Part shown: positions 4,940 through 21,548 of the stretch, piece after piece
Numbering within the stretch: the stretch's first letter is position 1
Layout of the letters: every line of letters begins with the position of its first letter
From: Geminicoccaceae bacterium
GTDB lineage: Bacteria; Pseudomonadota; Alphaproteobacteria; Geminicoccales; Geminicoccaceae
Direction of reading: 5' to 3'
Length of the DNA stretch: 64,000 nucleotides
NCBI GenBank assembly: GCA_025999455.1
Contig: AP024683.1
Coordinates: forward strand, 3,288,451-3,352,450
The notes under the pieces: model-generated
Told to the model about the DNA's origin: nothing
The model's database searches: none
Seen by the model: the letters and a program-made list of their open reading frames with translations, nothing else
Translations under genes and position numbers: made by a program

Positions 4940-6292
4940 TCAAAAGAGGAGTCGTGCGAGCGCCTCGCGATAAGCGCGCGTGACGCGCGCCTTGGCGCGG
5001 TGGCGGCCACCGACCACGAGCCGGTGCCCGGCCGCCCAGACCTCGCGCACCGCCGCCCGACCGGCGCAGAAGATCCAGCCGTCGAGGGCTCGGTCGTCGG
5101 TGCGGCCCGCGAGGTCGGGATGCTCGGGGTCGAGCGCCACGAGATCGGCCGGGGCACCCGGGCGGATCCCGAACAGCTCGCGGCCCAGGGCACGGGCCCC
5201 GCCTTCGAGCGCCGCCTCGAACAACACCCGCCCCGTCGAACGACCGGGCTCGGCGAGACAGTTGCGCCGGCCGAGGGCGAGGCGCTGGGCGTATTCGAGC
5301 TGGCGGAGTTCGGCCGCGGCGTCGATCTGGACGTTCGAATCGCTGCCGATCCCGAACCGGCCGCCTTCGCGGCGGAACGCGGTCGCGGCGAAGATCCCGT
5401 CGCCCAGGCTCGCCTCGGTGATCGGGCAGAGGCCGAGTGTCGCGGCCGAGCCGGCGAGCGTTTTCCGCTCCGCCTCGGTGGCGTGCGTGCCGTGGATCAG
5501 GCAGAGCCGTTCGGAAAGGCCGATCGTGTCCGCGACGAGCGCGATCGGGGTCGTACCGTGGACGCGGCGGCAGGCTTCGACCTCGCGCGGCTGCTCGCTC
5601 GCGTGGAGGTGGATGGGCCCCGTGGGGAAGCTTTCCGCGAGCCGCCGCAGCTCCTCGGGTGTCACCGCCCGGATCGAGTGCGGGGCGATCCCGATCCCGC
5701 CCACGGGCAACGTGGCGACCGCCTTCGCCGCCGCCGCGTGGATCCGGCCGAACAGCTCGAGGTCGCAGACGAACCGGCGCTGACCCTCGCTCGGCGGTGC
5801 CCCGCCGACCTCGCCGTGGGCGTAGAAGCTCGGCAAGAGGAGAAGGCCGATCCCGGTGGCCCGCGCCGCCTCGACGTGGCGGAGCGCGAGCTCGGCCGGC
5901 TCGTCGTAAGCTCGTCCCTCGGGGTCGTGATGGAGATAGTGGAACTCGGCCACCGCCGTGAACCCGGCCTCGAGCATCTCGGCATAGGCGAAGGTGGCGA
6001 TCGCCTCCACCTCCTCGGGGCCGAGCCGGGCCAGGAAGCGGTACATGAGCTCGCGCCAGGTCCAGAAACTGTCCTCGCCCGGCCCCGCCACCTCGGCGAG
6101 CCCGGCCATGGCGCGCTGGAAGGCGTGGCTGTGCAGGTCGGCGAGGCCCGGCACGACGATCCCGGCCACGCGCTCGCCCTCGCCCTGGCCGGGCTCGACC
6201 GAAGCGATCCGGCCGCGGCCGTCGATCCGCACCGTCACCCGTTCGGCCCAGCCCTCGGGCAGGAGCGCACGCTCGAGGCAGAGGACGGTCAT
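4940..6292 (-). CDS. hutF: Formimidoylglutamate deiminase
   Basis: A 450-residue amidohydrolase-superfamily enzyme that deiminates N-formimidoyl-L-glutamate to N-formyl-L-glutamate and ammonia, the fourth step of the five-step histidine pathway. The zinc-binding HSH motif is at residues 54-56 ([13 protein letters not shown]). Later metal and substrate motifs are [18 protein letters not shown] and GSDSNVQID. The ATG at 6292 (GGAG a few bases upstream) is preferred to a frame-open start 27 codons earlier. It is divergent from hutI and shares with it an intergenic region carrying a HutC-type operator. HutF together with HutG means that formimidoylglutamate is processed in two steps rather than by direct formamide release. 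Confidence 0.95.
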
Positions 6293-6375: not shown

Positions 6376-7578
6376 TTGCGCGTCGATCGGCTCTTCACCG
6401 ACGTCCGCCTCGCGACCATGGCCCCGGACCGGCCGGGGCTCGGCATCGTCGAGGACGGCGTGCTCGCCACCCGCGAGGGGCGGATCGCCTGGCTCGGCCC
6501 GCGCGCGGAAGCCCCGGCCTTCGTGGCGCGCGAGACGATCCGGGGCGACGGTCGCTGGCTCACCCCCGGGCTGATCGACTGCCACACCCATCTCGTTTGG
6601 GCCGGTGACCGCGCGGCCGAATTCGAGCGCCGCCTCGAAGGGGCGACCTACGAAGAGATCGCGCGCGAGGGCGGTGGCATCCTCTCGACCGTGCGGGCGA
6701 CCCGCGCCGCGAGCCGCGACGAGCTCGTCCGGGCCGCCCTGCCGCGGCTCGACGCGCTCCTCGCCGAGGGTGTGACCACGGTCGAAGTGAAGTCGGGCTA
6801 CGGGCTCGAGCCCGCGACCGAGTACCGTCAGCTCGAGGCCGCCCGGGCCCTCGAGGTCGAGCGGGCGGTGCGGATCGAGCCCACCTTCTTGGGCGCTCAC
6901 ACGCTGCCGCCCGAGTACGCCTCCGACCGCGACGGCTATCTCCGCCTCCTCTGCGACGAGATGATCCCGCGCATCGCCCGCGACCGGCTCGCCCGGGCGG
7001 TCGACGCCTTCTGCGAGAAGATCGCCTTCACGCCCGAAGAGACCCGGCGCGTCTTCGAGGCGGCCCGCGCGCACGGGCTGCCCGTCAAGCTCCACGCCGA
7101 TCAACTCTCCGACACGGGCGGCGCCGCCCTCGCCGCTTCCTTCGCCGCGCTCAGCGCCGACCATCTCGAATACACGAACGCCGAAGGTGTGCGGGCGATG
7201 GCCGGCGCCGGCACGGTCGCCGTCCTCCTGCCCGGCGCCTTCTATTGCCTGCGCGAAACGCAGCTCCCGCCGGTCGAGAGCTTCCGCCGGGCGGGCGTGC
7301 CGATGGCCGTGGCGACCGACTGCAACCCCGGCACCTCGCCCCTGCTCTCGCTCCTCCTGGCCATGAACATGGCGGCCACGCTCTTCCGGCTCACCGTGAC
7401 CGAGTGCCTTCTGGGCGTGACCCGCAACGCCGCCCGGGCCCTCGGCCTCGCCGACGATCGCGGCACGCTCGAGATCGGCAAGCGGGCGGATCTGGCGCTC
7501 TGGTCGATCGAGCGGCCGGCCGAGCTCGTCTATCTGATCGGCGCCCGGCCGCTCGCCGGCCGCTGGGTCGGCGCATGA
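6376..7578 (+). CDS. hutI: Imidazolonepropionase
   Basis: A 400-residue metal-dependent amidohydrolase that opens the ring of 4-imidazolone-5-propionate to give N-formimidoylglutamate, step three of histidine degradation. The metal-binding pair HTH is at about residues 70-72 ([13 protein letters not shown]), followed by HADQLSD, the SADHLEY histidine and [10 protein letters not shown]. The start is taken as TTG at 6376 because GGGAGG ends five bases upstream and the protein then matches usual family length; an in-frame upstream ATG at 6316 would run through the operator. It is the first gene of the plus-strand hut operon and overlaps hutH by ATGA. Confidence 0.93.
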
Positions 7579-9119
7579 CGGCCCCGCTCGAGATCCGCGC
7601 CGGCGGCAACCCGCTCGCCCTCTGGCGGCAGGTCCGCCAGGGTGCGGCGCCGCGGCTCGCGCCCGATTGCCGGCCGCGGATCGAAGCCGGACACCGGGCG
7701 ATCCTCGCGGCCGCCGCGGGCGAGCGCGCCGTCTACGGGCTCAACACCGGCTTCGGCAAGCTCGCCCTCGTCCGCATCCCGGCCGGCCGGCTCGTCGAGC
7801 TCCAGGTCAACCTCGTCCGCTCCCACCAAGCGGGCGTGGGCGAGCCGCTTCCCGCCCCCGCGGTCCGGCTCGTGCTCGCGACCAAGCTCGCCTCGCTCGC
7901 CCACGGCGCGTCGGGCGTGCAGCCGGCCGTGGCCGAGCTCCTCGAGGCGATGCTCGCCCGCGACCTCCTGCCGGTGATCCCCTCCCAAGGTTCAGTCGGC
8001 GCCTCGGGTGATTTGGCACCGCTCGCGCACCTGGCCGCGGTCCTGATCGGCGAGGGCGAAGCCTTTTGGCACGGCGAACGGCTGCCCGGTCGCGAGGCGC
8101 TCGCGCGAGCCGGTCTCGCCCCCGTGACCCTCGGGCCGAAAGAGGGTCTGGCGCTCTTGAACGGGACCCAGGTCTCGACCGCGCTCGCCCTCGACGCGCT
8201 CTTCGCCCTCGAGCCCGTGCTCGCGGCGAGCCTCGTCGTGGGGGCTGCGTCGGTCGACGCCGCGGCCGGCTCCGACACGCCCTTCGACCCCCGGATCCAC
8301 GCGCTCCGCGGCCAGCCCGGGCAGATCGCCGTGGCTTCGATCCTGCGCGCCCTCATGGCCGGAAGTGCCATCCGCCGCTCGCATCTCGAAGGCGATCCGC
8401 GCGTCCAGGACCCCTATTCGCTCCGCTGCCAGCCGCAGGTCGTGGGCGCCTGCCTCGACCTCGTGCGCCAGGCGGCCGCGACCCTCGAGCGCGAGGCGAA
8501 CGGCGTGTCCGACAACCCGCTCGTCGTCGAGACGGGCGAGGTCCTCTCGGGCGGCAATTTCCACGCCGAGCCCGTGGCCTTCGCGGCCGATCAACTGGCG
8601 CTCGTGATCGCGGAGCTCGGCAACATCGCCCAGCGCCGTTGCGCGCTCCTGTGCGATCCGGCGCTCTCCGGCCTGCCCGCCTTCCTGGTCCGCGAGCCGG
8701 GCCTCCATTCGGGCTTCATGGTGGCCGAGATCACCTCCGCGGCCCTGGCTTCCGAGAACCGCCAGAAGGCCGCCCCCGCCTCGATCGACACGATCCCGAC
8801 CTCGATCGACCAGGAAGACCACGTCTCGATGGCGGCGCACGCCGCCCGTAGGCTCGGCCCCATGGTCGAGAACCTCGCCCGCATCGTGGCGATCGAGGCC
8901 TTGATGGCGGCCCAGGGGATCGAGCTGCGCGCCCCGCTCGCGACGAGCCCGCGCCTTTCCCGCTTCCTCGAGGCGGTGCGGAGCGTGGCCCCGCCGCTCG
9001 ACGCCGACCGGCCGCTCTCGCCCGACATCGAGGCGGTGGCGGGCCTCGTCCGCGACGGCACGCTCGCCGGGATCCTCACGGTCGAGGAGCGCGCCCTCCT
9101 GTTCGGAGACGGGGCATGA
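7575..9119 (+). CDS. hutH: Histidine ammonia-lyase
   Basis: A 514-residue enzyme removing ammonia from L-histidine to give urocanate, the committed step. The Ala-Ser-Gly triad at residues 143-145 ([14 protein letters not shown]) forms the electrophilic MIO cofactor. The active-site loop tyrosine is at 54 (VYGLNTGFG), and the C-terminal half holds the usual [11 protein letters not shown]-type and QEDHVSM segments. The start at 7575 overlaps the hutI stop (ATGA), and its own stop overlaps hutG in the same way, so translation of the operon is probably coupled. Length and motifs are typical and nothing is missing. Confidence 0.96.
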
Positions 9120-9949
9120 CGAGCGCGGACCGGATCGGCCCGATCGAGATCCATTGGGGCGACTCGCCGCTCGTCTTGAGCCAGCCGCACGGCGGCACCT
9201 GGCTCCCGCCCGAGGTCACGGCCGCCCTCGACGAGACGGGCCACACCGTGGCCGACACCGATTGGTGGATCGACCGGCTCTACGCGCCGCTCGCCGAGCG
9301 CTTCCGGGCGACGGTCGTGCGCACGCCCGTGAGCCGCTGGGTGATCGACGTCAACCGCGATCCGAGCGGCGCCTCGCTCTACCCCGGGCAGGCGACGACC
9401 GGGCTCGTGCCGACCGAGACCTTCGACGGCACGCCCATCTGGCGGCCGGGTGCCGAGCCCGATGCGGCCGAGATCGCGCGGCGCAAGCGGCTCTGGTTCG
9501 AGCCCTACCACGCCGCCCTCGCCGCAGCGGTCACCCGCACCCGCTTGCGCTACGGCTTCTGCCTGCTCTGGGACTGCCACTCGATCCGCTCGCGGATCCC
9601 GCGGCTCTTCGACGGCGTGCTGCCGACCTTCAATCTCGGCACCTTCGACGGCCGGTCCTGCTCGCCCACACTGCGTGCGGCGGCCGAGCGGGTGCTCGCC
9701 GGCACGGGCGAGCGCTTCGTGATCGACGGCCGCTTCAAAGGTGGCTGGATCACCCGCCATTGGGGCCGGCCGGCCGAGGCCGTGGAGGCCGTCCAGATGG
9801 AGCTCGCGCAAGCGGCCTACATGGACGAGAGCCCACCTTGGACCTTCCGCGAGGAGAAGGCCGAGCGGGTCCGGGCGGTCTTCGCGACCTTGATCGAAAC
9901 CCTGCTCCAGGAGGCCGGGCGGCTGCACGCCCCGGGGACCGCACGATGA
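9116..9949 (+). CDS. hutG: N-formylglutamate deformylase
   Basis: A 277-residue N-formylglutamate amidohydrolase that releases formate and L-glutamate, the final step of this version of the pathway. Family motifs are [10 protein letters not shown] near the N-terminus, [27 protein letters not shown] and the metal-site segment LWDCHSIRS. Overlaps of four bases with hutH upstream and hutU downstream place it in the same transcript. It pairs with HutF across the divergent promoter; neither would be useful alone. Confidence 0.95.
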
Positions 9950-11625
9950 CCGATCCGCGTCTCGACAACGCCCGCAAGATCCGCGCCCCGCGCGGCCGGA
10001 CCATGTCCTGCAAGACCTGGGCGGCCGAGGGGGCCTTGCGGATGCTCATGAACAATCTCGACCCGGAGGTCGCCGAACGCCCCGAAGCCCTCGTCGTCTA
10101 CGGCGGGATCGGCCGCGCCGCCCGCGATTGGGACTGTTTCGATCGGATCGTCGCGGCCCTTCGCCGGCTCGGGCCGGACGAGACCCTGCTCGTCCAATCC
10201 GGCAAGCCGGTCGGGATCTTCAAGACCTTCCCGGACGCGCCGCGGGTCTTGATCGCGAATTCGAACCTGGTCGCCAAATGGGCCACCTGGGAAGAGTTCG
10301 ACCGGCTCGACCGGCTCGGGCTCATGATGTACGGCCAGATGACCGCCGGCTCCTGGATCTACATCGGCAGCCAGGGGATCGTGCAGGGCACCTACGAGAC
10401 CTTCGCCGAGGTCGGCCGGCGGCACTATGGTGGGAACCTGCGCGGCAAATGGATCCTGACCGCCGGGCTCGGCGGCATGGGCGGCGCCCAGCCCTTGGCC
10501 GCGACCATGGCCGGGGCGTCGTTGATCGCGATCGAATGCCGTCCCTCGGCGATCGAGTTCCGGCTCAAGACCCGCTATCTCGACACCAAGGCCGACACGC
10601 TCGACGAGGCCCTGGAGATCGTCGACCGGCATCATCGCATGGGCAAGCCGGTCTCGGTCGGGCTTCTCGGGAACGCCGCCGAGCTCGTGCCCGAGATCGT
10701 CCGCCGCGGCATCCGTCCCGACGTCGTGACCGACCAGACGAGCGCCCACGACCCGCTCCACGGCTATCTCCCGGCCGGCTGGACGCTCGCCGAGTGGGAG
10801 GAGCGCCAGGAGCGCGATCCCGAGGGCGTGAAGCGCGCCGCCAAGGAGTCGATGGCGGTCCACGTCCGCGCCATGTTGGAGCTCCACCGGCAGGGCGTGC
10901 CGACGCTCGACTACGGCAACAACATCCGCCAGATGGCGAAGGACATGGGGGTCGAGGACGCCTTCGCCTTCCCGGGCTTCGTCCCGGCCTACATCCGACC
11001 GCTCTTCTGCCGCGGGATCGGGCCTTTCCGCTGGGCGGCGCTCTCGGGCGATCCCGAGGACATCTTCAAGACCGACCGGAAGGTGAAGGAGCTGATCCCG
11101 GACGATCCGCACCTCCACCAGTGGCTCGACATGGCCGAGGAGAAGATCGCCTTCCAGGGCCTGCCGGCGCGGATCTGCTGGCTGGGTCTCGGCCAGCGGC
11201 ACAAAGTGGGGCTCGCCTTCAACGAGATGGTGGCGAAGGGCGAGCTCGCGGGCCCGATCGTGATCGGCCGCGACCATCTCGATTCGGGCTCGGTCGCCTC
11301 GCCCAACCGCGAGACCGAGGCGATGCGCGACGGCTCGGACGCGGTCGCCGACTGGCCGCTCCTGAACGCGCTCTTGAATTGCGCCTCGGGGGCCTCCTGG
11401 GTCTCGATCCACCACGGCGGCGGGGTCGGCATCGGCTATTCGCAGCATGCCGGCATGGTCGTCGTCGCCGACGGCACGCCCGAAGCCGCCCGCCGGCTCG
11501 AGCGGGTGCTCTTCAACGACCCGGGCACGGGGGTCATGCGCCACGCCGATGCGGGCTATCCCGAAGCGATCGCCTGTGCCCGCGAGCAGGGCCTCGTGCT
11601 CCCCGCCCTCGGGATCAACTGGTGA
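9946..11625 (+). CDS. hutU: Urocanate hydratase
   Basis: A 559-residue urocanase, the usual size, converting urocanate to 4-imidazolone-5-propionate with tightly bound NAD as electrophile. Visible features are the N-terminal [18 protein letters not shown] segment, the NAD-binding [12 protein letters not shown] loop, the substrate-domain segment [13 protein letters not shown], and the [15 protein letters not shown] motif near the C-terminus. The start overlaps the hutG stop by ATGA. A 178-bp interval with two tiny overlapping open frames separates it from the TRAP genes that follow in the same direction. Confidence 0.96.
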
Positions 11626-11729
11626 CGCGCGAGCCCGTGGCATCCATGGTCGAAGACCGCGAGGTCGGTAGCGACATCGAGGCCGTCGAAGCCGCCCTGC
11701 GCGACCTGCCGGCGGAGCTCTTCGCATGA
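11622..11729 (+). CDS. Possible 35-residue ORF coupled to hutU
   Basis: A GTG at 11622 overlaps the hutU stop (GTGA) and opens a 35-codon acidic frame ending at 11729, where a second ATGA overlap opens a 21-codon frame (11726-11791). The chain of 4-base overlaps copies the arrangement of the hut genes. Neither peptide has recognisable motifs, so they may simply be a spacer whose frames happen to be open, or leader-like peptides before the TRAP genes. Confidence 0.25.
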
Positions 11730-11803
11730 GCGCGGCCCGCTTTTCGCAAGTCCGCGTTCGACCGGCCGGGAAAGGTCTCGGCCCAGCCTGACGGAGGAAA
11801 GCC

Positions 11804-12895
11804 ATGAAGCGTCGCAAGCTGGTTCTCGGCACGGGCGCGGTCGCCGCGACCGCCGCCGCGTTCCCCGCCCCGGCGATCTCGCAGCAGCGTATCGAATGGC
11901 GGATGGTCACGGCCTGGCCCAAGAACCTGCCCGGGCCCGGTGTCGCCGCCCAGAAGGTCGCCGACCGGATCGCCGCGGTCACGGGCGGGCGGATCACCGT
12001 CAAGCTCCACGCCGCGGGCGAGATCGTGCCGGCCACGGGCGTGTTCGACGCGGTCGCGGCCGGCACCGCCGACCTCTACCACGCGGTGCCGGCCTATTGG
12101 GTCTCGAAGTCGCCCGGCATCGGCTTCTTCGGCTCCTTCCCCTTCGGCCTGACCGCCTACGAGCAGCAGGCCTGGCTCCTGCACGGCGGCGGCCAGGCGC
12201 TCTACGACGAGATCTACGCCAAGTTCGGCATCAAGCCCTTCAACACCGGCAATTCCGGGCCGCAATGGCTCGGCTGGTTCCGCAAAGAGATCAAGTCGAT
12301 CGACGATTTCCGCGGCCTGCGCTTCCGCACCGCAGGCCTGGGTGCCGAGATGTTCCGCCGGGCCGGTGCCTCGGTCGTGACCTTGCCGGCGGGTGAGATC
12401 TTCCAAGCCCTGCAGTCCGGCACGATCGACGCGGCGGAGTTCGTGGGGCCCTTCTCGGATGCGCCTCTGGGCCTGCACCAGGTCGCCAAGAATTACTACT
12501 TCCCGGGCGTGCAGGAGCCGTCCTCGGCCGAGGAGATCGGCATCAATCTCCAGCGCTGGAACGCGCTCCCCGACGAGCTCAAGGCCGCCGTCCGCTTCGC
12601 TTGCCAGTCGGTCGCCGAGGAAGTCACGACCGAGTACGACACGCGCCATCCGCAAGCGCTCGCCCAGCTCGTGAGCCAGCACGGCGTGCAGGTCAAAGAG
12701 GCGCCGCGCGATCTGCTCGAAGCGCTCGGCAACGCCGCCGGTCAAATGCTCGCCGAATACCGCGAGCACCAGGACCCGCTCGTCAAGAAGATCGCCAACG
12801 CCTACGCCGAGTTCCGCAACAAGAGCCAAAGCTACATGATGCAGAGCTACGGCGCGATCTTCAACGCTCGCGCCCTGCCCATCAAGTGGGGCTGA
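11804..12895 (+). CDS. TRAP transporter substrate-binding protein (DctP/TakP type) in the hut operon
   Basis: A 363-residue periplasmic solute receptor. The N-terminus MKRRKLVLGTGAVAATAAA with a cleavage site near AIS-QQ is a Sec or Tat-like signal. The family signature RFRTAGLGAEMF, then QALQSGTIDAAEFVGP, holds the arginine that normally binds the carboxylate of the ligand. Overall it resembles the TakP (2-oxo acid) branch. An excellent ribosome site, GGAGGAAAG, precedes the ATG. Lying between hutU and hutC and followed by its two permeases, it probably captures histidine, urocanate or an imidazole carboxylate; the ligand is inferred from context only. Confidence 0.92.
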   Translation: MKRRKLVLGTGAVAATAAAFPAPAISQQRIEWRMVTAWPKNLPGPGVAAQKVADRIAAVTGGRITVKLHAAGEIVPATGVFDAVAAGTADLYHAVPAYWVSKSPGIGFFGSFPFGLTAYEQQAWLLHGGGQALYDEIYAKFGIKPFNTGNSGPQWLGWFRKEIKSIDDFRGLRFRTAGLGAEMFRRAGASVVTLPAGEIFQALQSGTIDAAEFVGPFSDAPLGLHQVAKNYYFPGVQEPSSAEEIGINLQRWNALPDELKAAVRFACQSVAEEVTTEYDTRHPQALAQLVSQHGVQVKEAPRDLLEALGNAAGQMLAEYREHQDPLVKKIANAYAEFRNKSQSYMMQSYGAIFNARALPIKWG

Positions 12896-12924
12896 GCGTC
12901 GACCGGCGGGCGCGGGGGGAACCC

Positions 12925-13485
12925 GTGCAGCTCCTCCTCGCGCTCGCCGGCGCGCTCGACCGGATGGGCCGCGTGGTCGGCAAGGCCGTGCGCTGGCTCG
13001 CGGTCCTTCTGGTCCTGATCCAGTTCGCCGTGGTCGTGCTGCGCTACGCCTTCGGCACGAGCTACATCTGGCTGCAGGAGAGCGTGCTCTACACGAACGC
13101 CACGCTCTTCATGCTCACGATCGCCTACACCTTCCTGGTCGACCAGCACGTCCGGGTCGATCTTTTCTACGCCCGCTGGTCGGCGCGCCGCCGAGCCCTC
13201 GTCGACCTTTCGGGCATCCTCCTCGCCGTCCTTCCCTTCTGCGGCCTCGTGATCTGGGCCTCCTGGGGCTACGTCGCGGTCTCCTTCCGCATGGGCGAAG
13301 GCCCGATGCAGGTGGGAGGCCTGCCGCTCCTCCCCTGGCTCAAGAGCCTGATCCCGGCGATGGCGACCCTCCTCGCCCTCCAGGCCCTCGCGATCGCGCT
13401 CCGCTGCCTCGCCGTGCTCGCGGGCCACGCCGGAACGCACTTCCCCCATCGCGGCGGCCACGGCGAGCCGGAGGTCCGGGCTTGA
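12925..13485 (+). CDS. TRAP transporter small permease (DctQ)
   Basis: A 186-residue membrane protein with four predicted transmembrane segments, the small subunit joining the receptor to the large permease. The start is taken as GTG at 12925, preceded by GGGGGGA; an ATG 13 codons later is an alternative. The segment WLQESVLYTNATLFMLTIAYTF followed by QHVRVD is characteristic of DctQ proteins. The C-terminus overlaps the large permease by TTGA, giving tight coupling. Confidence 0.9.
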   Translation: MQLLLALAGALDRMGRVVGKAVRWLAVLLVLIQFAVVVLRYAFGTSYIWLQESVLYTNATLFMLTIAYTFLVDQHVRVDLFYARWSARRRALVDLSGILLAVLPFCGLVIWASWGYVAVSFRMGEGPMQVGGLPLLPWLKSLIPAMATLLALQALAIALRCLAVLAGHAGTHFPHRGGHGEPEVRA

Positions 13486-15053
13486 GCACGCACGGGCTCG
13501 CGAACCTGCTCGACGCGCTCATGTTCCTGAGCTTGTGCGGGCTCATCCTCACGGGCCTGCCGGTCGTCTTCGTCTTGACCGGCTGTGCCGTCGTCTTCGC
13601 CGCCCTCGGCACGGCCCTCGGCGTCTTCGATCCGTTCCTCTTGCGGGCACTCGCCCAGCGCGTCTTCGGCACGATGACGAGCGAGGTGCTCGTCGCCATC
13701 CCGCTCTTCGTCTTCATGGGCATCATGCTCGAGCGCTCCAAGATCGCCGAGGAGCTCTTGGAAGCCATGGGCAGCCTGTTCGGCCGGATCCGCGGCGGGC
13801 TCGCCGTCTCGGTCTCGGCGGTGGGCGCACTCCTCGCCGCCTCGACCGGGATCGTCGGGGCGACCGTCGTCACGATGGGCCTCATGGCGCTGCCGGCCAT
13901 GCTCCGGCGCGGCTACGACAAGGGCTTCGCCACGGGCTCGATCTGCGCCGCCGGCACGCTCGGCCAGATCATCCCGCCCTCGACCGTCATGGTGATCCTG
14001 GGCGAGGTGCTCTCCGCCGCCTACCAGCAAGCCCAGCTCGCCCAGGGCAAGTTCACGATCGAGACCGTCTCGGTGGGCCAGCTCTTCGCCGGCGCCATGA
14101 TCCCGGGGCTCCTGCTCGTCGGCCTCTACATCCTCTACCAGCTGGCCCGCGCCTGGCTCCACCCGACGGTCGCGCCTGCGATCCCGCGCGAGGAGCTCGG
14201 CACGGTCGGCGCCCGCCGGCTCTTTTCCGTCCTCGTTCCCCCGCTCGTCCTGATCGTGGCGGTGCTCGGGTCGATCCTGGGCGGGATCGCGACCCCGACC
14301 GAGGCCGCCTCGGTGGGTGCCGTGGGCGCCACGCTCCTCGCCGCCCGCCGCCAGGGGGGTGCGGCCGCACGCCTCGCGCCGATCGCCGGCCTCGCGGCCT
14401 TGGGCCTGGCCCTCCTGGGCGCCGTGTTCGACATGCGGCTCGGCCGCGAGATCGTGCCGGCCGGGGATCGCGCGGCGATGGCGGTCGCCGCGGTCCTCGT
14501 CCTGATCCTGGCCATCGGGCTCCTCGCAGCACTCTGGTCGCTCGGTCGCGCCGGCATCCTCGCCCGGGTGTGCGAGAGCACGACGACGATCACCGCCATG
14601 ATCTTCGCCACGCTCATCGGTGCCACGCTCTTCTCGCTCGTCTTCCGGGGCCTCGGCGGCGACGAGACGGTCGAATCGCTCCTGGCGGCCTTGCCGGGCG
14701 GCACCTGGGGGGCGCTCGCGACCGTGATGGCCGCCATGTTCCTCATGGGCTTCTTCTTGGATTTCGTCGAGATCACGATCATCGTGATCCCGATCGTCGG
14801 CCCCGTGCTCCTCGCGATGGGGATGGATCCGATCTGGCTCGGTGTGTTGATCGCCCTCAACCTCCAGACGAGTTTCTTGACCCCGCCCTTCGGCTTCGCG
14901 CTCTTCTATCTGGCGGGCGTGGCCCCGAAGGAGGTCGGCGCGCGCGACATCTATCGCGGCATCGTGCCCTTCGTGGCGCTCCAGCTCCTGGCACTCGCGA
15001 TCGTCGCGGCCTTCCCGGGGCTCGCCACCTGGCTACCGCGCGCGCTCTTCTGA
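13482..15053 (+). CDS. TRAP transporter large permease (DctM), extended form
   Basis: A 523-residue polytopic transporter, the sodium-coupled translocation subunit. It begins at a TTG overlapping the DctQ stop. Typical DctM segments are AIPLFVFMGIMLERS, AASTGIVGATVVTMG, GQIIPPSTVMVILG and, near the end, NLQTSFLTPPFGFALFYL. It is about 90-100 residues longer than a standard DctM because of an insertion around residues 285-365 that adds one or two hydrophobic segments and a charged loop. Extended DctMs are known in the TakP-like branch, consistent with the receptor. The gene ends 15 bases before hutC. Confidence 0.92.
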   Translation: MSTHGLANLLDALMFLSLCGLILTGLPVVFVLTGCAVVFAALGTALGVFDPFLLRALAQRVFGTMTSEVLVAIPLFVFMGIMLERSKIAEELLEAMGSLFGRIRGGLAVSVSAVGALLAASTGIVGATVVTMGLMALPAMLRRGYDKGFATGSICAAGTLGQIIPPSTVMVILGEVLSAAYQQAQLAQGKFTIETVSVGQLFAGAMIPGLLLVGLYILYQLARAWLHPTVAPAIPREELGTVGARRLFSVLVPPLVLIVAVLGSILGGIATPTEAASVGAVGATLLAARRQGGAAARLAPIAGLAALGLALLGAVFDMRLGREIVPAGDRAAMAVAAVLVLILAIGLLAALWSLGRAGILARVCESTTTITAMIFATLIGATLFSLVFRGLGGDETVESLLAALPGGTWGALATVMAAMFLMGFFLDFVEITIIVIPIVGPVLLAMGMDPIWLGVLIALNLQTSFLTPPFGFALFYLAGVAPKEVGARDIYRGIVPFVALQLLALAIVAAFPGLATWLPRALF

Positions 15054-15068
15054 GCCCGGATCCGAGCC

Positions 15069-15779
15069 TTGGACGCGACCCCCCTCTACCGGCGGATCAT
15101 GGAGGCGATCCGCACCGAGATCGCCCAGGGCCGGCTGCCGCCCGGGGCGCGCGTGCCCTCCGAGCACGAGCTCGTCCGCCGCTTCGGCGTGGCACGGATG
15201 ACTGCGAACCGCGCCCTCAAGGAGCTCGCCGCCGAAGGCCTGATCGTGCGGACCGCCGGCAGCGGCACCTACGTGGCCGACCGCAAGCTCGAGCATTCGG
15301 CCCTCGTCGTCCCCGACATCGCTCAGGAGATCCGCGCCTCCGGCCGCGCCTACCGGGGCGACGTGCTCGCGGCCGAGGAATGCGCCGCACCCGAGCCGGT
15401 CGCCCGGGCGCTCGAGCTCGACCCGGGCGCGCCCGTCTTCCACACCCGGATCCTGCACCGCGCCGACGGGATCCCGGTCCAGCTCGAGGAGCGCTGGGTC
15501 AACCCGGCCTACGCCCCCGAGTTCCTCGCCCAGGATTTCACCGCCCGCACGCCCAACGCCTACCTGACCGCGATCGGCCGGGTCGAGGAGGCCGAGGAGA
15601 CGATCGAAGCGGTGGCGGCCGACCGCGCCGAGGCCCGTTTGCTCGAGGTCGCCCCGGGCACGCCCTGTCTCCTCTTGACCCGGCGGACCTTCGCCCGCGG
15701 TCTCTGGGCCACGACCGCGCGCCTTTTGGGCCCGGGCCGGCGCTGGCGGCTCACCGCCCGCTTCCGCCCGCCGCTCTGA
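15069..15779 (+). CDS. hutC: Histidine utilisation repressor (GntR/HutC family)
   Basis: A 236-residue GntR-family regulator. Residues 1-72 are the winged helix-turn-helix (PLYRRIMEAIR, LPPGARVPSEHELVRRFGVARMT, RTAGSGTYV); residues about 90-230 form the UTRA effector domain, which binds urocanate in HutC. The closing ARLLGPGRRWRLTARF is typical of HutC. The start is a TTG at 15069, giving the expected N-terminus; an ATG ten codons later would cut the first helix. As last gene of the hut-TRAP operon it would be autoregulated through the operator at 6321-6332. Confidence 0.92.
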   Translation: MDATPLYRRIMEAIRTEIAQGRLPPGARVPSEHELVRRFGVARMTANRALKELAAEGLIVRTAGSGTYVADRKLEHSALVVPDIAQEIRASGRAYRGDVLAAEECAAPEPVARALELDPGAPVFHTRILHRADGIPVQLEERWVNPAYAPEFLAQDFTARTPNAYLTAIGRVEEAEETIEAVAADRAEARLLEVAPGTPCLLLTRRTFARGLWATTARLLGPGRRWRLTARFRPPL

Positions 15780-15781
15780 GC

Positions 15782-16624
15782 TCAGCGCACGAGCCAGGCG
15801 GCGACCGGCTCGATCTGCGTGGGATCCAGGAGCGCCGGGGCGTGACCGCAGCCCGGCAGCGTGAGGATTTCGCATTCGGGCCCGCGGCGCAGCATCGCCC
15901 GCGCCGTCTCTTCGAGGAGCAGGGTCGATTCGGCACCGCGCAGGACGAGCGTGGGTGCGGTGATCGCTTCCCAGAGCGGCCAGAGGTCGATGTCCGCCAC
16001 CGCCTGCCCCTCCCAGGGCACGCGGATGCCCGGATCGTAGTGGAGCCGCAGCCCTTCGGGTGTCACGCGCACCGAATGCTCGGCGAGATGGCGCCACTGG
16101 GCGTCGGTGAGCCGGCCGAAGGGGGCGTGGATCCGCCGCAGATAAGCCTCGGCCTCCTCGAGCGAGGCGAAGAGCGGGTCCGTGCCGACGTACGAGCGGA
16201 TCGTCTCGAGTGCGGCCCTCGGCACGAACGGGCCCACGTCGTTCAAGACGAGGCGCCGGATCCGGCCGTCGGGCGTCGCGGCGAGGGCCATGCCGATCAG
16301 CCCACCCATCGACGTGCCGACCCAGTCGACCGCCTCGAGCCCGAGGAGCTCCAGGAGCCGGGCGAGTTGGGCGGCGTAAGTGGGCACCGTGTAGTGGCGC
16401 TTGTCGGCGAGCCAGGAGCTCCGGCCGCGGCCCGGCACGTCGACCGCGAGAACCCGCGCGCCGCGTGCCGCCAGCGCCTCGGCGAGGGCGTCGAAGTCGC
16501 GGGCGTTGCGGGTGAGGCCGTGGACGCAGACGACCGTCCGCGCGGCCGCGGGATCGCCGCGTTCGACGATCCCGATCCGCACCCCCGCCTGGGGCCCGTC
16601 GAGTTCGACCTCGAGGAGCCGCAT
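15782..16624 (-). CDS. Alpha/beta-fold hydrolase
   Basis: A 280-residue hydrolase with the motif VCVHGLTRNARDFD for the oxyanion hole, the nucleophile elbow GTSMGG, an acid in the strand TLVLRGAESTLL region and a late histidine in GCGHAPALL. No signal peptide, so cytoplasmic. Probable last gene of the minus-strand operon that begins with the dioxygenase at 21548, 36 bases after the aminotransferase. Its stop lies two bases from the convergent hutC stop. In this setting it may hydrolyse an ester, lactone or C-C bond of the imported compound, but the substrate is unknown. Confidence 0.85.
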   Translation of the reverse strand: MRLLEVELDGPQAGVRIGIVERGDPAAARTVVCVHGLTRNARDFDALAEALAARGARVLAVDVPGRGRSSWLADKRHYTVPTYAAQLARLLELLGLEAVDWVGTSMGGLIGMALAATPDGRIRRLVLNDVGPFVPRAALETIRSYVGTDPLFASLEEAEAYLRRIHAPFGRLTDAQWRHLAEHSVRVTPEGLRLHYDPGIRVPWEGQAVADIDLWPLWEAITAPTLVLRGAESTLLLEETARAMLRRGPECEILTLPGCGHAPALLDPTQIEPVAAWLVR

Positions 16625-16660
16625 CCTCGGCCTCGCGCCCGCTCGGCGGCCCGCCCTTGC

Positions 16661-17611
16661 TCAAAACGGCCGGGTGGGTGCCGCCTCGTCCAGCCGATCG
16701 AGATATTGGCGCACGAAGTCGAAGCCGACGAGCCGGATGTAGGCGTCGGCGAGTCGCCGGGTCATCGGGCCCCAGACCTGGCCCGCGGGGCCGATCGGGT
16801 TGCCGTTGACCGAGCGGACCGGGCAGATGCAGAGCGAGGTCGAGGTCAAGAAGCACTCGTCGGCATTGTAGGCGTCGTAGAGGTCGAGATCGGCCTCGAC
16901 GACCTCGATACCCTGCTCGCGGGCGAGCTCGATCACGGTCCGCCGGCTCACCCCCGGGAGCACGTACTTCTCGCGCGGGGTGAAGAGCGTGCCGTCGCGC
17001 ACCAGGAAGATGTTCGAGCCGAGCCCCTCGGCGAGGTTGCCGTTGACGTCGAGCAGGACCGCCCAGGCCTCGGGGTCGATCGCCTCGACCTCCTGGCTCG
17101 CGACGATGAGGTTCAAATAGTTGTGGGTCTTGGCGCGCGGGGTCAGCATTTCCGGGGCGATGCGCCGCTGCGAAGGGGTCACGACCTTGATCCCGTCGCG
17201 GAAGAGCTTGGCGCGCTGGCGCAAGGGCAAGGGCATGCACTCGACGATCACGGTCGGCCCGTAATGGTCCCAATTGTCGCCCTCGACCTTCTTGATCCCG
17301 CGGCTCACCCGCTGCCCGAGCCAGTAATCGTCGTTCGGGCCCAGAAGATGCCGGTTGCGCTCGAAGACTTCTTCCGAGATCGCGATCATCTCGGCGGGCG
17401 AGAGGCCCGGGTCGATGCGCAGATATTTGAGCGAGCGGTAGAAGCGTTCGATGTGCTCCTGCAAGCGGAAGATCTTGTGGCCGAAGGTGCGGGTCATGTC
17501 GAAGGCGCCGTCGCCGTAGACCCAGCTCGTGTCGCGGAACGGTACCCGGACCTCGCTCTCCGGCACGTACTTCCCGTTGAAGTAGCAGATCCGCTCGTTC
17601 GCCCGGCTCAT
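16661..17611 (-). CDS. Class-IV (fold-type IV) aminotransferase, branched-chain/D-amino-acid type
   Basis: A 316-residue PLP enzyme of the family containing branched-chain aminotransferase, D-amino-acid transaminase and aminodeoxychorismate lyase. The Schiff-base lysine is Lys161 (RAKTHNYLN). The N-terminal DTSWVYGDGAFDMTRTF, the LAEGLGSNIF segment and the phosphate-binding SLCICPVRSV loop are typical. The ATG at 17611 is preferred to one 24 codons upstream because the protein then opens like its family. It lies about 100 bases after the second TRAP set, so it probably acts on the imported substrate or its oxidation product. Assignment as IlvE is unsafe; stereochemistry and substrate cannot be read here. 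Confidence 0.85.
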   Translation of the reverse strand: MSRANERICYFNGKYVPESEVRVPFRDTSWVYGDGAFDMTRTFGHKIFRLQEHIERFYRSLKYLRIDPGLSPAEMIAISEEVFERNRHLLGPNDDYWLGQRVSRGIKKVEGDNWDHYGPTVIVECMPLPLRQRAKLFRDGIKVVTPSQRRIAPEMLTPRAKTHNYLNLIVASQEVEAIDPEAWAVLLDVNGNLAEGLGSNIFLVRDGTLFTPREKYVLPGVSRRTVIELAREQGIEVVEADLDLYDAYNADECFLTSTSLCICPVRSVNGNPIGPAGQVWGPMTRRLADAYIRLVGFDFVRQYLDRLDEAAPTRPF

Positions 17612-17711
17612 CCTGGTCCTCCGCTCGCTCGGCCGACGGACGCTAAGCCCCCGTACCGGGACGGGCAAGCGCGCGGCCCTCATGGCGGGGAAGCGAGGGC
17701 CGTTCCGCGCC

Positions 17712-19028
17712 TCAGCTGCTCAGCGCGCGCGGCAGCCAGAGGGCGAGGTCGGGGAAGAGGATCACGAGGCCGATCGCGATCCCCTGGAGGACCATGAAGG
17801 GCCAGACCGCGGCGTAGATCTCCTGCAGGCTGATCTCGGGCGGTGCCACGCCTTTGAGGTAGAAGCAGGCCGGCCCGAAGGGCGGGGAGAGATAGCTGAT
17901 CTGCATGTTGAGGCAGAAGAGCACGCCGAACCAGACCTTGTCGTAGCCCAAGCTCTCGATGATCGGCACGAAGACCGGCATGGTCAACAACAACACGCCG
18001 ATCCAATCGATGAAGCAGCCCATGACGGCGAGGATCACCATCATGAGCACGACGACGACCCAGGGCTCGTAGGGCAGATAGCCGATCGTGGCGCGCATCC
18101 AGGCGATCCCGCCCATGAGATTGTAGACACCGATCGAGGCGGTGGCGCCGAAGGTGAGCCAGAGGAGGAGCCCGCAGGCCGCCATGGTCTGGAGCGAGGC
18201 GTCGCGGAGCATCGCCCAGGAGAGCTCGCCGCGGAGCCAGGCGGCGAGGATCACGCCGAGCACGCCCATGGCCGCCGCCTCGGTGACCGCCGCGAGCCCG
18301 AGATAGATCGTGCCGAGCACCGAAAAGGCGATGCCGAGGGGCAGGACGAGGCTTTTCAGCATCAGGAGTTTTTCGGCGAGCGGCATCGCCCGTTCGGCTT
18401 CGGGCAGAGGCGGGCCCAGCGCCGGGTTCAGGACACAGCGGCCGGCCACGTAGAGGACGTAGAGGCCGGCCAAAAGCAGCCCCGGCACGATCACGGCGAG
18501 GAAGAGATCGCCGATCGAGACGTTGGCGGTGAGGCCGTAGAAGACGAGGACGATCGAGGGTGGGATCATCGTGCCGAGCGAGCCGCCGCCGCAGACGATC
18601 CCGATCGCGAGCTTCTTGTCGTAGCCGAGGCGGAGCATCTGCGGCAGGGCCACGAGGCCCAAGAGGATCACCTCGCCGCCGATGATCCCGGTCGTGGCGG
18701 CCATGAGGACCGCCGCCACGAGCGTCATGATGCCGACCCCGCCCGGCATCCGCCCGGCCCAGACGCTCATCGCCCGGTAGAGGTCGCGGGCCACCCCGCT
18801 CCGGTCCATGATGGTCGCCATCAAGAGGAACATCGGCACGGACAGGAGCACGTAGTTCGTGACGAAGCCGTAGATCCGGCTCGAGATCAAAAGGAGGGCG
18901 TCGAAGCCGAAGAAGCCGAGCGTGAAGCCCACGCCCACCGCCCCGAGCGCGAAGGCCATCGGCATGCCGATGGCGAGGAGCAGGGCGAGGGCCCCCACCA
19001 TCGCGAACGTGGCGAGCTCGATGCTCAT
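17712..19028 (-). CDS. TRAP transporter large permease (DctM), second system
   Basis: A 438-residue polytopic permease, the standard DctM length, with the segments LSVPMFLLMATIMDRSG, TTGIIGGEVILLG, GTMIPPSIVLVFYGL and the C-terminal NMQISYLSPPFGPACFYL. It overlaps the upstream small permease by four bases. Clearly distinct from the 523-residue DctM in the hut operon, so the two transporters are not recent duplicates. Confidence 0.93.
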   Translation of the reverse strand: MSIELATFAMVGALALLLAIGMPMAFALGAVGVGFTLGFFGFDALLLISSRIYGFVTNYVLLSVPMFLLMATIMDRSGVARDLYRAMSVWAGRMPGGVGIMTLVAAVLMAATTGIIGGEVILLGLVALPQMLRLGYDKKLAIGIVCGGGSLGTMIPPSIVLVFYGLTANVSIGDLFLAVIVPGLLLAGLYVLYVAGRCVLNPALGPPLPEAERAMPLAEKLLMLKSLVLPLGIAFSVLGTIYLGLAAVTEAAAMGVLGVILAAWLRGELSWAMLRDASLQTMAACGLLLWLTFGATASIGVYNLMGGIAWMRATIGYLPYEPWVVVVLMMVILAVMGCFIDWIGVLLLTMPVFVPIIESLGYDKVWFGVLFCLNMQISYLSPPFGPACFYLKGVAPPEISLQEIYAAVWPFMVLQGIAIGLVILFPDLALWLPRALSS

Positions 19029-19612
19029 GCGGCCGGCCGACCGCGCTGCGGGCCGCGCACGAGCTCGACCGAGTGGGCCACGAGCTGCAGGAGGAGTAGA
19101 GCGGAGCCCAAGAAGAAAGCGGTGCGGATCACGACCGGCATGGGGAAGTTCCAGGCGTGGCCGCTCATCTCCCAGATCGTGATCGATTCGAGCGCTTGGA
19201 CGCCGGTGAACCAGGTCAGGACGGCCACGTAGAAGATCGCGAGGAGGTGGCTCACGAGATCGCAGAGCCAGCGGGCCCGGGCCGGCAGGAGGTCGTAGAT
19301 CGGGGTGATGCGGATGTGCTCGCGCCGCGCCTGGGCGTAGGCCCCGCCCAAAAGGAAGCCGATCACGCAGAGCATGGTCGTGAGATCGTGCACCCAGATC
19401 GTGGGTGCGGCGAGGAGCGAGGAGGCGAGCACTTCCCAGCCCGTGAGCAGGGCGGAGAGGAGGAAGACCCAGGCGAGCGTCTCGCCCGTGCGGCGCGAGA
19501 GGCGGTCGATCGGCCCTTCCGCCGGCGCGGGCGCCGCCGCTCCCCCTCCCCCGGCCGCGGCACCGCCCTTCGTGGCGGCGCGCGGCCCGCTCGGCTCTCC
19601 GCCTTCCCTCAT
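19025..19612 (-). CDS. TRAP transporter small permease (DctQ), second system
   Basis: A 195-residue small permease with four hydrophobic segments beginning at about residue 48. The first 40 residues are an unusual Gly/Ala/Pro-rich extension, so a later start is possible. IWVHDLTTMLCVIGFLLGGAYA followed by the REHIRI motif is characteristic of DctQ. It lies between the receptor and the large permease and overlaps the latter. Confidence 0.88.
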   Translation of the reverse strand: MREGGEPSGPRAATKGGAAAGGGGAAAPAPAEGPIDRLSRRTGETLAWVFLLSALLTGWEVLASSLLAAPTIWVHDLTTMLCVIGFLLGGAYAQARREHIRITPIYDLLPARARWLCDLVSHLLAIFYVAVLTWFTGVQALESITIWEMSGHAWNFPMPVVIRTAFFLGSALLLLQLVAHSVELVRGPQRGRPAA

Positions 19613-19643
19613 CGGCCGTGCCGGGCCGTCGCCCGGCCGAGGC

Positions 19644-20663
19644 TCAAAGGAGGCCGATCTTGGTCATGTAGGCGACGTAGCTGTCGTAGACCTTCTGCGC
19701 CATGGGGCTCTTCTTGCCCCACTCTTCCCAGACCGTCCGGGCCACCCGGCGCAGCTCGAGCCGTTCCTCGCGACCCCAGGAGATCAAGGTCGAGGGATCG
19801 CGCGCCGCCACCGCTTCCTCGTCGAGCTTCTCGTTGGCCTCGAGGCTGTAGCGGTTGAACTCGACCGTCTCGTCGAGCAGGACCTGCTTCAAGTCGGCCG
19901 GCAGCTTCTCCCAGATGTCGAGCTTGATCGTGACGTCGGAGGCCGGCATCGAGTGGATGCCCGGATAGATCGCGTATTTCGCGATCTTGCCGTAGCCGAG
20001 CTGGTCGTTCATGCCGAGCGAGCCCCAGTCGGTGGCCTCGATCCGGCCGCGCTCGAGGGCGGTGTAGACCTCGGTGCCGGGCAGCGTGATCACGCCCACC
20101 CCGAGCTTCGACCAGATCGCGGCACCGAGCCCCTCGGGCGCCCGCATCTTGATGCCCTTGAAGTCGCGGATGTTGCGCAAGGGCATCTTGGAGGGGATCG
20201 ATTCGGCCCCCCACAAGACCGGGCCCAGATAGAACGCGCCGAACCTGGCGTAGAGCTCGCGGGCGAGCTCGTTGCCGCCGCCCTCGTAGAACCAGCGGGT
20301 GAGCTGGTCCGGGCTCTCCCAGGCGCAGTTGAGGTCGGCCAAGAGCGCGAAGGCCGGGTCCTTGCCGACATAGTACCCCGTGCCGCCGTTCGAGCCCTGC
20401 AGGATGCCGGCGCGCACCGCATCGAGCACCTCACCCGGCGGCACGATCGCGTTCACCGGCAGCGCTTCGATCTCGATCCGCCCGCCCGAGCGCTCCTTCA
20501 CCCGCTGGGCGAAGCGCTCGAAAGCCAATTGATTGACCGTGTTCGGCTGCCAGAAGCTCTGCCACTTCCAGCGATGTTCGGCGGCCGCCCGCGCCTTCCG
20601 GTCGCCGACCAGGACGAGCGCGCAAGCCGCCGCCCCCACCGAAAAGCCCCGTCGTGTCGTCAT
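19644..20663 (-). CDS. TRAP transporter substrate-binding protein (DctP), second system
   Basis: A 339-residue periplasmic receptor with an N-terminal twin-arginine-like signal (TTRRGFSVGAAACALVLVG) cleaved before about residue 28. Family signatures are IKMRAPEGLGAAIWSKLGV, then the ALERGRIEATDW segment with the ligand-contact region. It lies 39 bases after the dioxygenase gene, so the four genes are likely co-transcribed. The family binds carboxylates, so an amino or oxo acid ligand is reasonable. The identity is unknown. Confidence 0.92.
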   Translation of the reverse strand: MTTRRGFSVGAAACALVLVGDRKARAAAEHRWKWQSFWQPNTVNQLAFERFAQRVKERSGGRIEIEALPVNAIVPPGEVLDAVRAGILQGSNGGTGYYVGKDPAFALLADLNCAWESPDQLTRWFYEGGGNELARELYARFGAFYLGPVLWGAESIPSKMPLRNIRDFKGIKMRAPEGLGAAIWSKLGVGVITLPGTEVYTALERGRIEATDWGSLGMNDQLGYGKIAKYAIYPGIHSMPASDVTIKLDIWEKLPADLKQVLLDETVEFNRYSLEANEKLDEEAVAARDPSTLISWGREERLELRRVARTVWEEWGKKSPMAQKVYDSYVAYMTKIGLL

Positions 20664-20702
20664 CTCTGCCTCCCTTTTTTCTTCTTCGGGAACCGGTCGG
20701 GT

Positions 20703-21548
20703 TCACATCGCGGCCGGGCGCTCCTCGACTTTGCCCGTGCCGCGGAACAGCACCCGGTTCAGCCGATCCATCACCTCCTGGTAGTGGGCGCGGGCCGCCG
20801 GGTCGAGGTCGGCCTTCGGCCGCTCCTCCGGCTCGAAATGGCCGTAGCGGTCGACGCCGCGCACGAGCGTGGCGCTGTCGGTGCGGCCGACCACCTGGCG
20901 GACGTAGGTCGGCACGTAGCGGATGACGAACCCGATCCGCCGATCGTCCGAGCGGTTCGCTTCCGAGCCGTGGACGAGCTTGACGTGGTGGAGCGACATC
21001 TCGCCGGGTGCGAGGACGTCGAACAGGACCTTCGATTCGTCGACCTCGACCTGGATCTCCTGGCCGCGCGACAGGAGGTTCTTCTCGGCGAAGGTGTCCT
21101 TGTGCGGCAGGATGTCGAGCTTGTGACTCCCCGGCCAGAACTTCATGCAGCCCGATTCGGGCGTGGCGGGCGACAGGGCCAGCCAGGCCGTGACGATGTC
21201 GGCGGGGTCGAGGCCCCAATAGGTCAAGTCCTGGTGCCACGACACGTAGGCCGGATCCTTGGCCTCCTTGTTGAAGAAGCCCGAGGACCAGCAGAGGATG
21301 TCCGGCCCGATCACGTCCTCGACCGCATCGAGGATCCTCGGGTGGCGGATCAGCTCGTCGCACCAGGTGAAGACGAGATGCGCCTTGGTGCGCAGGTATT
21401 TCTGGATGTCCGGGTCACCCGAGGCCTCGGCCGCCTCGAGCTTGCGCCGATAAGCGCGCGCCTCGGCCTCGCTCATCACCCGGATCGGGAAGACGAAGCC
21501 GTTCTCTTCGTAGAAGCGGATCTGCTCCGCGCTCAAAAGCTTGCCCAT
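20703..21548 (-). CDS. Phytanoyl-CoA dioxygenase (PhyH)-family Fe(II)/2-oxoglutarate oxygenase
   Basis: A 281-residue non-haem iron oxygenase. The facial triad is visible as His105-x-Asp107 (SWHQDLTYW) and distal His193 (LVHGSEANRS), with Arg204 positioned for 2-oxoglutarate. Because the Asp is present, hydroxylation is expected rather than the halogenation seen in HxA/HxG relatives. The segment CMKFWPGSHK is typical. The ATG at 21548 is preceded by GGAGG. As the promoter-proximal gene of an operon with a TRAP transporter, an aminotransferase and a hydrolase, it probably hydroxylates the imported molecule or an early intermediate. Confidence 0.88.
   Translation of the reverse strand: MGKLLSAEQIRFYEENGFVFPIRVMSEAEARAYRRKLEAAEASGDPDIQKYLRTKAHLVFTWCDELIRHPRILDAVEDVIGPDILCWSSGFFNKEAKDPAYVSWHQDLTYWGLDPADIVTAWLALSPATPESGCMKFWPGSHKLDILPHKDTFAEKNLLSRGQEIQVEVDESKVLFDVLAPGEMSLHHVKLVHGSEANRSDDRRIGFVIRYVPTYVRQVVGRTDSATLVRGVDRYGHFEPEERPKADLDPAARAHYQEVMDRLNRVLFRGTGKVEERPAAM

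What the first reader, a model, noticed from the sequence alone, without database searches (positions are those of the whole stretch)
15782..21548. Unassigned operon: Fe(II)/2OG dioxygenase, TRAP transporter, class-IV aminotransferase, hydrolase
Six co-directional genes give the outline of a complete route: uptake of a carboxylate, hydroxylation by an enzyme with an intact HxD...H centre, transamination and hydrolysis. I do not recognise this set as a described pathway. A non-proteinogenic or D-amino acid, or an N-containing osmolyte, would fit the enzymes.
Basis: inference. Interest (0 to 1): 0.7.

Follow-up and report, generated by a model that had tools for sequence, protein, structure and literature searches.

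The report
Transporter-dioxygenase cassette beside transaminase-hydrolase pair
A bacterium related to Geminicoccaceae carries a recurring gene set that seems to import a small acid and oxidise it with an iron enzyme, next to a transaminase and a hydrolase that only recently became its neighbours, so the idea of one complete pathway is only half supported.

Summary
The six genes are present as described (15782-21548, minus strand): PhyH-type Fe(II)/2-oxoglutarate dioxygenase, TRAP P-Q-M, class-IV aminotransferase (AT4), alpha/beta-hydrolase (ABH). They end 2 nt from hutC of a hut operon with its own TRAP transporter. They are two modules rather than one conserved operon. (A) PhyH-TRAP recurs: 18 of 80 named PhyH loci hold P, Q and M relatives; of 49 other TRAP-receptor loci, 13 of 14 with Trp after the acidic metal-site residue (D212-W213 here) have a PhyH gene near, against 5 of 35 without. 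(B) AT4-ABH sits by hutC in 6 of 6 genomes of the genus, also in one without module A; in the 31 AT4 loci read outside the genus neither ABH nor this TRAP type was found. A and B are joined in 2 of 6 congeners, a third unresolved. Receptor relatives bind lactate or keto acids, so I read module A as uptake plus oxygenase-initiated breakdown of a small 2-oxo/2-hydroxy acid; the substrate is not shown. A D-amino acid or osmolyte route has no specific support. Three literature searches found no description of a PhyH-TRAP system.

The parts
20703..21548 (-). PhyH-family Fe(II)/2OG dioxygenase (module A); H105, D107, H193, R204
   Evidence: PF05721 110.5 bits; invariant in 13 of 13 aligned proteins; nearest solved chain 6zyk, 170.5 bits
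19644..20663 (-). TRAP substrate-binding protein (module A), R174 and D212-W213; twin-Arg type N-terminus by eye
   Evidence: PF03480 130.8 bits; nearest solved 4pe3 220 bits, lactate binder TTHA0766 (2zzv) 206 bits, ketoacid binder 7ug8 131 bits; motif table
19025..19612 (-). TRAP small permease DctQ (module A)
   Evidence: PF04290 70.3 bits
17712..19028 (-). TRAP large permease DctM (module A)
   Evidence: PF06808 241.9 bits; TIGR00786 282.2 bits, cut-off 268.45
16661..17611 (-). class-IV (BCAT-like) aminotransferase AT4 (module B), Lys K161 at the position expected for the catalytic one
   Evidence: PF01063 154.7 bits; K161, DxWxxQRxxRG and STS invariant in 37 of 37 aligned rows; below the cut-offs of the NCBIfam models listed
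15782..16624 (-). alpha/beta-hydrolase ABH (module B), GTSMGG nucleophile elbow
   Evidence: PF00561 82.1 bits; nearest solved 4ose 156.5 and 3bwx 142 bits, named only as hydrolases; GTSMGG and LND(V/I)GPF in 6 of 6 genus copies
15069..15779 (+). hutC repressor, convergent neighbour, end of the hut operon (context, not part of the set)
   Evidence: TIGR02018 277.5 bits, cut-off 220
6376..15053 (+). hutI, hutH, hutG, hutU and a hut-linked TRAP P-Q-M (context)
   Evidence: the 186-aa gene at 12925-13485 is taken as Q from its place only

Best explanation
Two modules stand in line. Module A (PhyH, TRAP P-Q-M) is an uptake-and-oxidation cassette: the periplasmic receptor binds a small carboxylate of the 2-hydroxy/2-oxo acid kind (carboxylate on R174, metal/hydroxyl site at D212-W213), QM import it with an ion gradient, and the PhyH enzyme oxidises the imported acid, or a near derivative, with O2, Fe(II) and 2-oxoglutarate as the first committed step of its breakdown. 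Module B (AT4, ABH) is a pair beside hutC that in this sub-lineage came to lie behind module A; a BCAT-like transaminase and an esterase/lactonase-type hydrolase could process the oxidised keto acid or its lactone, but this link is inferred. Shown: gene content, order, intact motifs, recurrence of the PhyH-TRAP pairing, the receptor signature, separability of A and B. Inferred: substrate class, residue roles, order of steps, co-transcription, any role of AT4 and ABH in the same route.
For: 18 of 80 named PhyH loci hold TrapP, TrapQ and TrapM relatives (two of the 18 are congeners; 17 of 80 with the stricter settings), in two layouts: co-directional behind PhyH, and divergent. From the receptor's side, 49 loci other than the window's own: a PhyH gene near 12 of 13 at 44% identity or more and 6 of 36 at 41% or less (p = 2e-6); by Trp at position 213, 13 of 14 against 5 of 35 (p = 4e-7; not corrected for kinship). 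The 13 non-genus P-Q-M loci found through PhyH and shown (receptors 35-50% identical) carry D-W; one more, L153 (32%), carries E-W. Receptor relatives: TTHA0766 lactate, ketoacid binder. Partners elsewhere: relatives in the 80 loci of PanB 10 (each directly behind PhyH), alcohol dehydrogenase 14, MetX-like esterase 8, SGL lactonase 5. Module B separable.
Against: The W213 split was noticed in the data on which it was then tested, the loci are related, and the genome search scored only the five best candidates per genome. 62 of 80 PhyH loci show no P-Q-M set of this type in the DNA held (some contigs are short); PhyH also stands by CitMHS, MFS or other TRAP permeases. Two of the 13 PhyH calls rest on distant PhyH genes (L296, L297) and one on a 60-aa piece at a contig end (L295). 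One of 14 W213 receptors (L293) has no PhyH near. The nearest solved receptor, 4pe3, has no ligand in its name and Tyr instead of Trp. TRAP-linked PhyH proteins are not one clade. No structure model could be made. No expression or binding data.
Confidence: 0.5

Rival explanations
1. A and B are chance neighbours: PhyH-TRAP handles one compound, AT4-ABH does an unrelated job (general transaminase plus esterase) by the hut operon.
For: AT4-ABH by hutC in 6 of 6 congeners, in G387 without PhyH or an orthologous TrapM; on other contigs than PhyH-TRAP in G233 and G386; the 31 AT4 loci read outside the genus show no ABH and no P-Q-M of this type and no neighbour cluster within three genes of AT4 in more than 3 of the 18 loci displayed.
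Against: Joined in G000 and G388 on one strand with short gaps; a VOC gene behind TrapM in G385 is 88% identical to one ahead of AT4 in G386, a second hint of shared company. One AT4 plasmid locus (Skermanella) has a TAXI-type TRAP transporter and an Ldh-family oxidoreductase near AT4, so transporter company of another type exists.
Confidence: 0.3
2. Module A serves a branched-chain 2-oxo/2-hydroxy acid of the pantoate / ketopantoate / 2-oxoisovalerate circle; AT4 then makes or uses the matching branched-chain amino acid. (A narrower form of the best explanation.)
For: PanB (3-methyl-2-oxobutanoate hydroxymethyltransferase; the L143 copy scores 266.4 bits, TIGR00222 cut-off 207.55) directly behind PhyH in 10 of 80 named loci and in G292; AT4 nearest to branched-chain transaminases; keto-acid type receptor.
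Against: Where PanB loci have the TRAP set (5 of 10) the receptors are only 35-39% identical and the layout is the divergent one; the nearer layout has alcohol dehydrogenase and esterase genes instead. AT4 misses the BCAT cut-off (178 of 245.55 bits).
Confidence: 0.2
3. One reading: one dedicated six-gene route to or from a non-proteinogenic or D-amino acid or an N-containing osmolyte.
For: Six genes in one direction with small gaps; full order kept in G388.
Against: The full order was seen only within one genus; D-amino-acid transaminase and ectoine hydroxylase models far below cut-off; receptor relatives bind lactate/keto acids.
Confidence: 0.1

Closest known systems
TRAP receptor TTHA0766 (lactate; 2zzv) and ketoacid-binding protein 7ug8
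   Same: DctP family; acidic residue at the same site (query D212 aligned to D216 of 2zzv and a Glu of 7ug8)
   Different: Window receptor has Trp next to it (Phe in 2zzv and 7ug8, Tyr in 4pe3) and is linked to a PhyH gene; ligand unknown
PhyH-type oxygenases: 6zyk (named only monooxygenase), CytC3 and syringomycin enzyme 2 (halogenases, from recall), SnoK, human-type PhyH, EctD
   Same: PhyH family, HxD...H metal centre
   Different: Far below the ectoine-hydroxylase and chlorinating-enzyme cut-offs; Asp present where, from recall, halogenases lack it; transporter-linked
Ectoine systems with a TRAP importer and the EctD hydroxylase (PMC5924519 and others, seen in the search listings only)
   Same: From recall, a TRAP transporter and a PhyH-type hydroxylase in one physiology
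   Different: Window PhyH fails the ectoine-hydroxylase model
Branched-chain transaminases 5mqz, 5cm0, 5e25
   Same: Class-IV family, nearest solved relatives
   Different: AT4 has W-L-G where 5cm0 has Y-I-R (alignment) and its own DxWxxQRxxRG motif

Membership tests
PhyH (PF05721) Fe(II)/2OG dioxygenase | Profile match and HxD...H triad with 2OG-binding Arg | tested here: met
   110.5 bits, cut-off 22; H105, D107, H193, R204 invariant in 13 of 13
Ectoine hydroxylase (TIGR02408) | Curated equivalog score 336.5 | tested here: not met
   21 bits
Chlorinating enzyme (TIGR01762) | Curated score 226.3 and no Asp in the triad (second point from recall) | tested here: not met
   78.7 bits; D107 present
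TRAP transporter (DctP/DctQ/DctM) | All three subunits | tested here: met
Lactate/ketoacid-type TRAP receptor | Sequence kinship to TTHA0766 and the ketoacid binder | tested here: met
   206 and 131 bits
Lactate/ketoacid-type TRAP receptor | Binding of such an acid | not testable with these tools
   needs a ligand screen
Branched-chain transaminase IlvE (TIGR01122) | Curated score 245.55 | tested here: not met
   178.4 bits
D-amino-acid transaminase (TIGR01121) | Curated score 277.45 | tested here: not met
   118.4 bits
3-oxoadipate enol-lactonase PcaD (TIGR02427) | Curated score 255.85 | tested here: not met
   69.7 bits
One conserved six-gene operon | Same set kept together outside close kin | tested here: not met
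   AT4 and ABH in 1 of 80 PhyH loci, a congener; joined in 2 of 6 genus genomes, 1 unresolved

The most novel reading that the evidence does not exclude
PhyH plus this TRAP subfamily is an undescribed, widespread uptake-oxygenase cassette: a receptor class marked by Trp after the acidic metal-site residue feeds a small 2-oxo/2-hydroxy acid to a dedicated dioxygenase that opens an unknown aerobic breakdown route, with swappable downstream enzymes (PanB, alcohol dehydrogenase plus esterase, lactonase, or here a BCAT-like transaminase plus hydrolase).
Probability: 0.45. Interest if true: 0.6.

Novelty: new variant of a known kind. Interest (0 to 1): 0.42.

Why it matters
TRAP receptors and PhyH-family oxygenases are both numerous and mostly without known substrates (general knowledge). 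A tight link between a receptor sub-class and an oxygenase family lets each be used to find the other's substrate: a ligand screen of one receptor could name the oxygenase substrate in many genomes. It also warns against reading a compact, same-strand gene run as one pathway when two of its genes are separable in sister species.

Tried and rejected
Ectoine/hydroxyectoine: rejected on score. Halogenase: rejected, Asp present and score low. D-amino-acid transaminase: rejected on score. Treating the GntR gene at 15069-15779 as regulator of this set: rejected, it is hutC at the end of a hut operon, though a reach across the 2-nt gap cannot be excluded. A single clade of TRAP-linked PhyH: rejected; the label needs 8 changes on a tree of 46 proteins (shuffled mean 10.8, 13 of 500 shuffles as low). 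The label there covered 9 loci, three of them with only part of a TRAP set; two PhyH stretches with an internal stop (L044, L045) were left out.

AT4 neighbours as a clue: in the 18 loci displayed no neighbour cluster lies within three genes of AT4 in more than 3 loci (c11 in L115, L118 and L122; c14 and c31 in L115, L116 and L118, one family; c7 in L117 and L126). Of ten neighbours scanned nine had a family, all different, and one had none. Some of the 31 AT4 loci outside the genus are short (for example L245, 3.5 kb), so absence there is weak. Plasmid records gave 7 PhyH and 2 AT4 records; five of the nine were opened and none shows the set.

Papers: 6ZYK no hit. PhyH with TRAP: 3 papers, all three opened at passages; each names the two separately. 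A search asking for 4 of 5 terms around pantoate and TRAP gave 0. PMC12632250 (passages) gave no help on lactate-type TRAP. Promoter/terminator scan uninformative. Structure prediction not available, so no fold search.

One search used 30 AT4 loci as control for the 18 of 80; the right number is 31 and was recomputed (p = 0.003, not corrected for kinship or locus length).

Full report
What is there. Six minus-strand genes fill 15782-21548: PhyH (281 aa), TRAP receptor P (339 aa), Q (195 aa), M (438 aa), class-IV aminotransferase AT4 (316 aa) and alpha/beta-hydrolase ABH (280 aa). Gaps are 39, 31, -4, 100 and 36 nt. All pass their Pfam cut-offs. PhyH has H105-x-D107...H193 and R204, invariant in 13 of 13 aligned proteins, a chosen subset.

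What lies beside it. On the plus strand 6376-15779 reads hutI, hutH, hutG, hutU, a second TRAP set and hutC, with hutF at 4940-6292 on the minus strand. ABH ends 2 nt from hutC. The GntR regulator and second TRAP are therefore histidine-utilisation genes.

Is it one operon in evolution? Within the genus (6 genomes) AT4 is in 6 of 6, PhyH at 81% or more in 5 of 6 and TrapM at 87% or more in 5 of 6, with 41% the best in G387. AT4-ABH is adjacent in 6 of 6 and convergent with hutC (in G233 about 1.1 kb with another reading frame lies between). In G385 the contigs end in the gap: behind TrapM is a VOC-type gene (PF13669) and AT4 starts about 165 nt from another contig's end. In G386 a VOC gene 88% identical to that one precedes AT4, while PhyH-TRAP is on another contig followed by an opposing gene. 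In G233 TrapM is followed by an ApbE gene on the other strand. G387 has AT4-ABH, no PhyH match and no orthologous TrapM. Hence modules A (PhyH-TRAP) and B (AT4-ABH) are separable and were joined, most simply, within this genus.

Module B outside the genus. AT4 is found in 55 of 385 class genomes (E <= 1e-50) and 17 of 31 family genomes (E <= 1e-40). Of 31 loci outside the genus that were read (19, one plasmid, 11) none shows ABH or a P-Q-M set of this type by tblastn; one has a weak TrapP2 match, and the Skermanella plasmid locus has a TAXI-type TRAP near AT4. In the 18 loci displayed no neighbour cluster is near AT4 in more than 3. AT4 is nearest to branched-chain transaminases, below their cut-offs, with invariant K161, DxWxxQRxxRG and STS in 37 of 37 rows.

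Module A outside the genus. PhyH relatives are in 98 of 385 class genomes at E <= 1e-40; 40 neighbourhoods were read, 7 with P, Q and M relatives, one of them the genus-mate G233. In the named-genome scan (best 80 of 579) 18 of 80 loci hold P, Q and M, two of them congeners (17 of 80 with stricter settings). Two layouts appear: co-directional PhyH-P-Q-M, in some loci with an IclR gene, an SGL-type lactonase, a zinc alcohol dehydrogenase and a MetX-like esterase; and divergent P-Q-M, in some loci with a GntR/FCD gene, an FAD oxidoreductase, a second PhyH, and PanB behind PhyH. Relatives anywhere in the 80 loci: PanB 10, dehydrogenase 14 (some only about 40% identical), esterase 8, lactonase 5, FAD oxidoreductase 8, second PhyH 20. 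Short contigs make these lower bounds. The tree of 46 PhyH proteins does not put TRAP-linked ones in one clade (8 changes; shuffled mean 10.8; 13 of 500 shuffles as low), so the link was gained or lost repeatedly.

From the receptor's side. A search with the receptor gave 54 places in 33 of 385 genomes, five candidates scored per genome. Leaving out the window's own and merging four double receptors gives 49 loci. PhyH genes of any kind lie near 12 of 13 with receptors at 44% identity or more and 6 of 36 at 41% or less (p = 2e-6). In the alignment the residue after the acidic metal-site residue (W213) is Trp in 14 loci, 13 with PhyH, and another residue in 35 loci, 5 with PhyH (p = 4e-7; close PhyH type 11 of 14 against 1 of 35, p = 1.4e-7). 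The split was noticed in these data and the loci are related, so p overstates. As a partly separate check, the 13 non-genus loci that came in through PhyH and are shown have D-W at 35-50% receptor identity; L153, left out, has E-W. The genome also holds a second PhyH-TRAP neighbourhood (about 2192201-2196941 of the contig; PhyH 28-31%, TrapM 60%), with Phe instead of Trp.

Likely function. Nearest solved receptors are 4pe3, the lactate binder TTHA0766 and a ketoacid binder. A conserved Arg restricts TRAP receptors to carboxylates (PMC4646407, start of abstract in the listing). Metal binding at the acidic site in such receptors is recalled, not from a call. Together with keto-acid and alcohol enzymes in other PhyH clusters this points to a small 2-oxo/2-hydroxy acid; which one is open. 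PanB and the BCAT-like transaminase make branched-chain acids the best single guess, at about one in five.

Literature. In the held library PhyH with TRAP gives 3 papers; in the passages of all three the genes are mentioned separately. Searches for the enzyme set gave mainly ectoine papers (listings only).

Verdict. The most useful result is the receptor motif that marks PhyH-linked TRAP systems.

Noticed in passing
window 6376-15779: A hut operon carries its own TRAP set between hutU and hutC; the receptor has an AAEFVGP stretch that recalls TakP (from memory). A TrapM2 relative stands beside hutC in all six genus genomes. One literature search (listing only) showed no paper on a TRAP importer in a hut operon.
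   Followed up: partly
L114:612-2123, L238:6116-7528, L242:3048-4367: Three congeners have a second histidine-ammonia-lyase-like gene (42-43% to HutH) between hutU and the hut TRAP; the window has none there.
   Followed up: no
L239 (G388), about 12987-14495: A 1.5-kb stretch of 77.5% GC without a called gene separates TrapP from TrapQ in this MAG; insertion or assembly fault not decided.
   Followed up: partly
whole genome G000: 25 DctP matches in a 3.76-Mb genome, TRAP-rich to my knowledge.
   Followed up: no
L256:6202-10942 (about G000:C1:2192201-2196941): A paralogous TRAP P-Q-M with a distant PhyH gene, next to ABC transporter genes in G000; the TRAP-PhyH pairing is also in G233 and G388.
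   Followed up: partly
L237:83-622 and L241:8439-8978: A VOC-type gene (88% identical between the two) follows TrapM in G385 and precedes AT4 in G386.
   Followed up: partly
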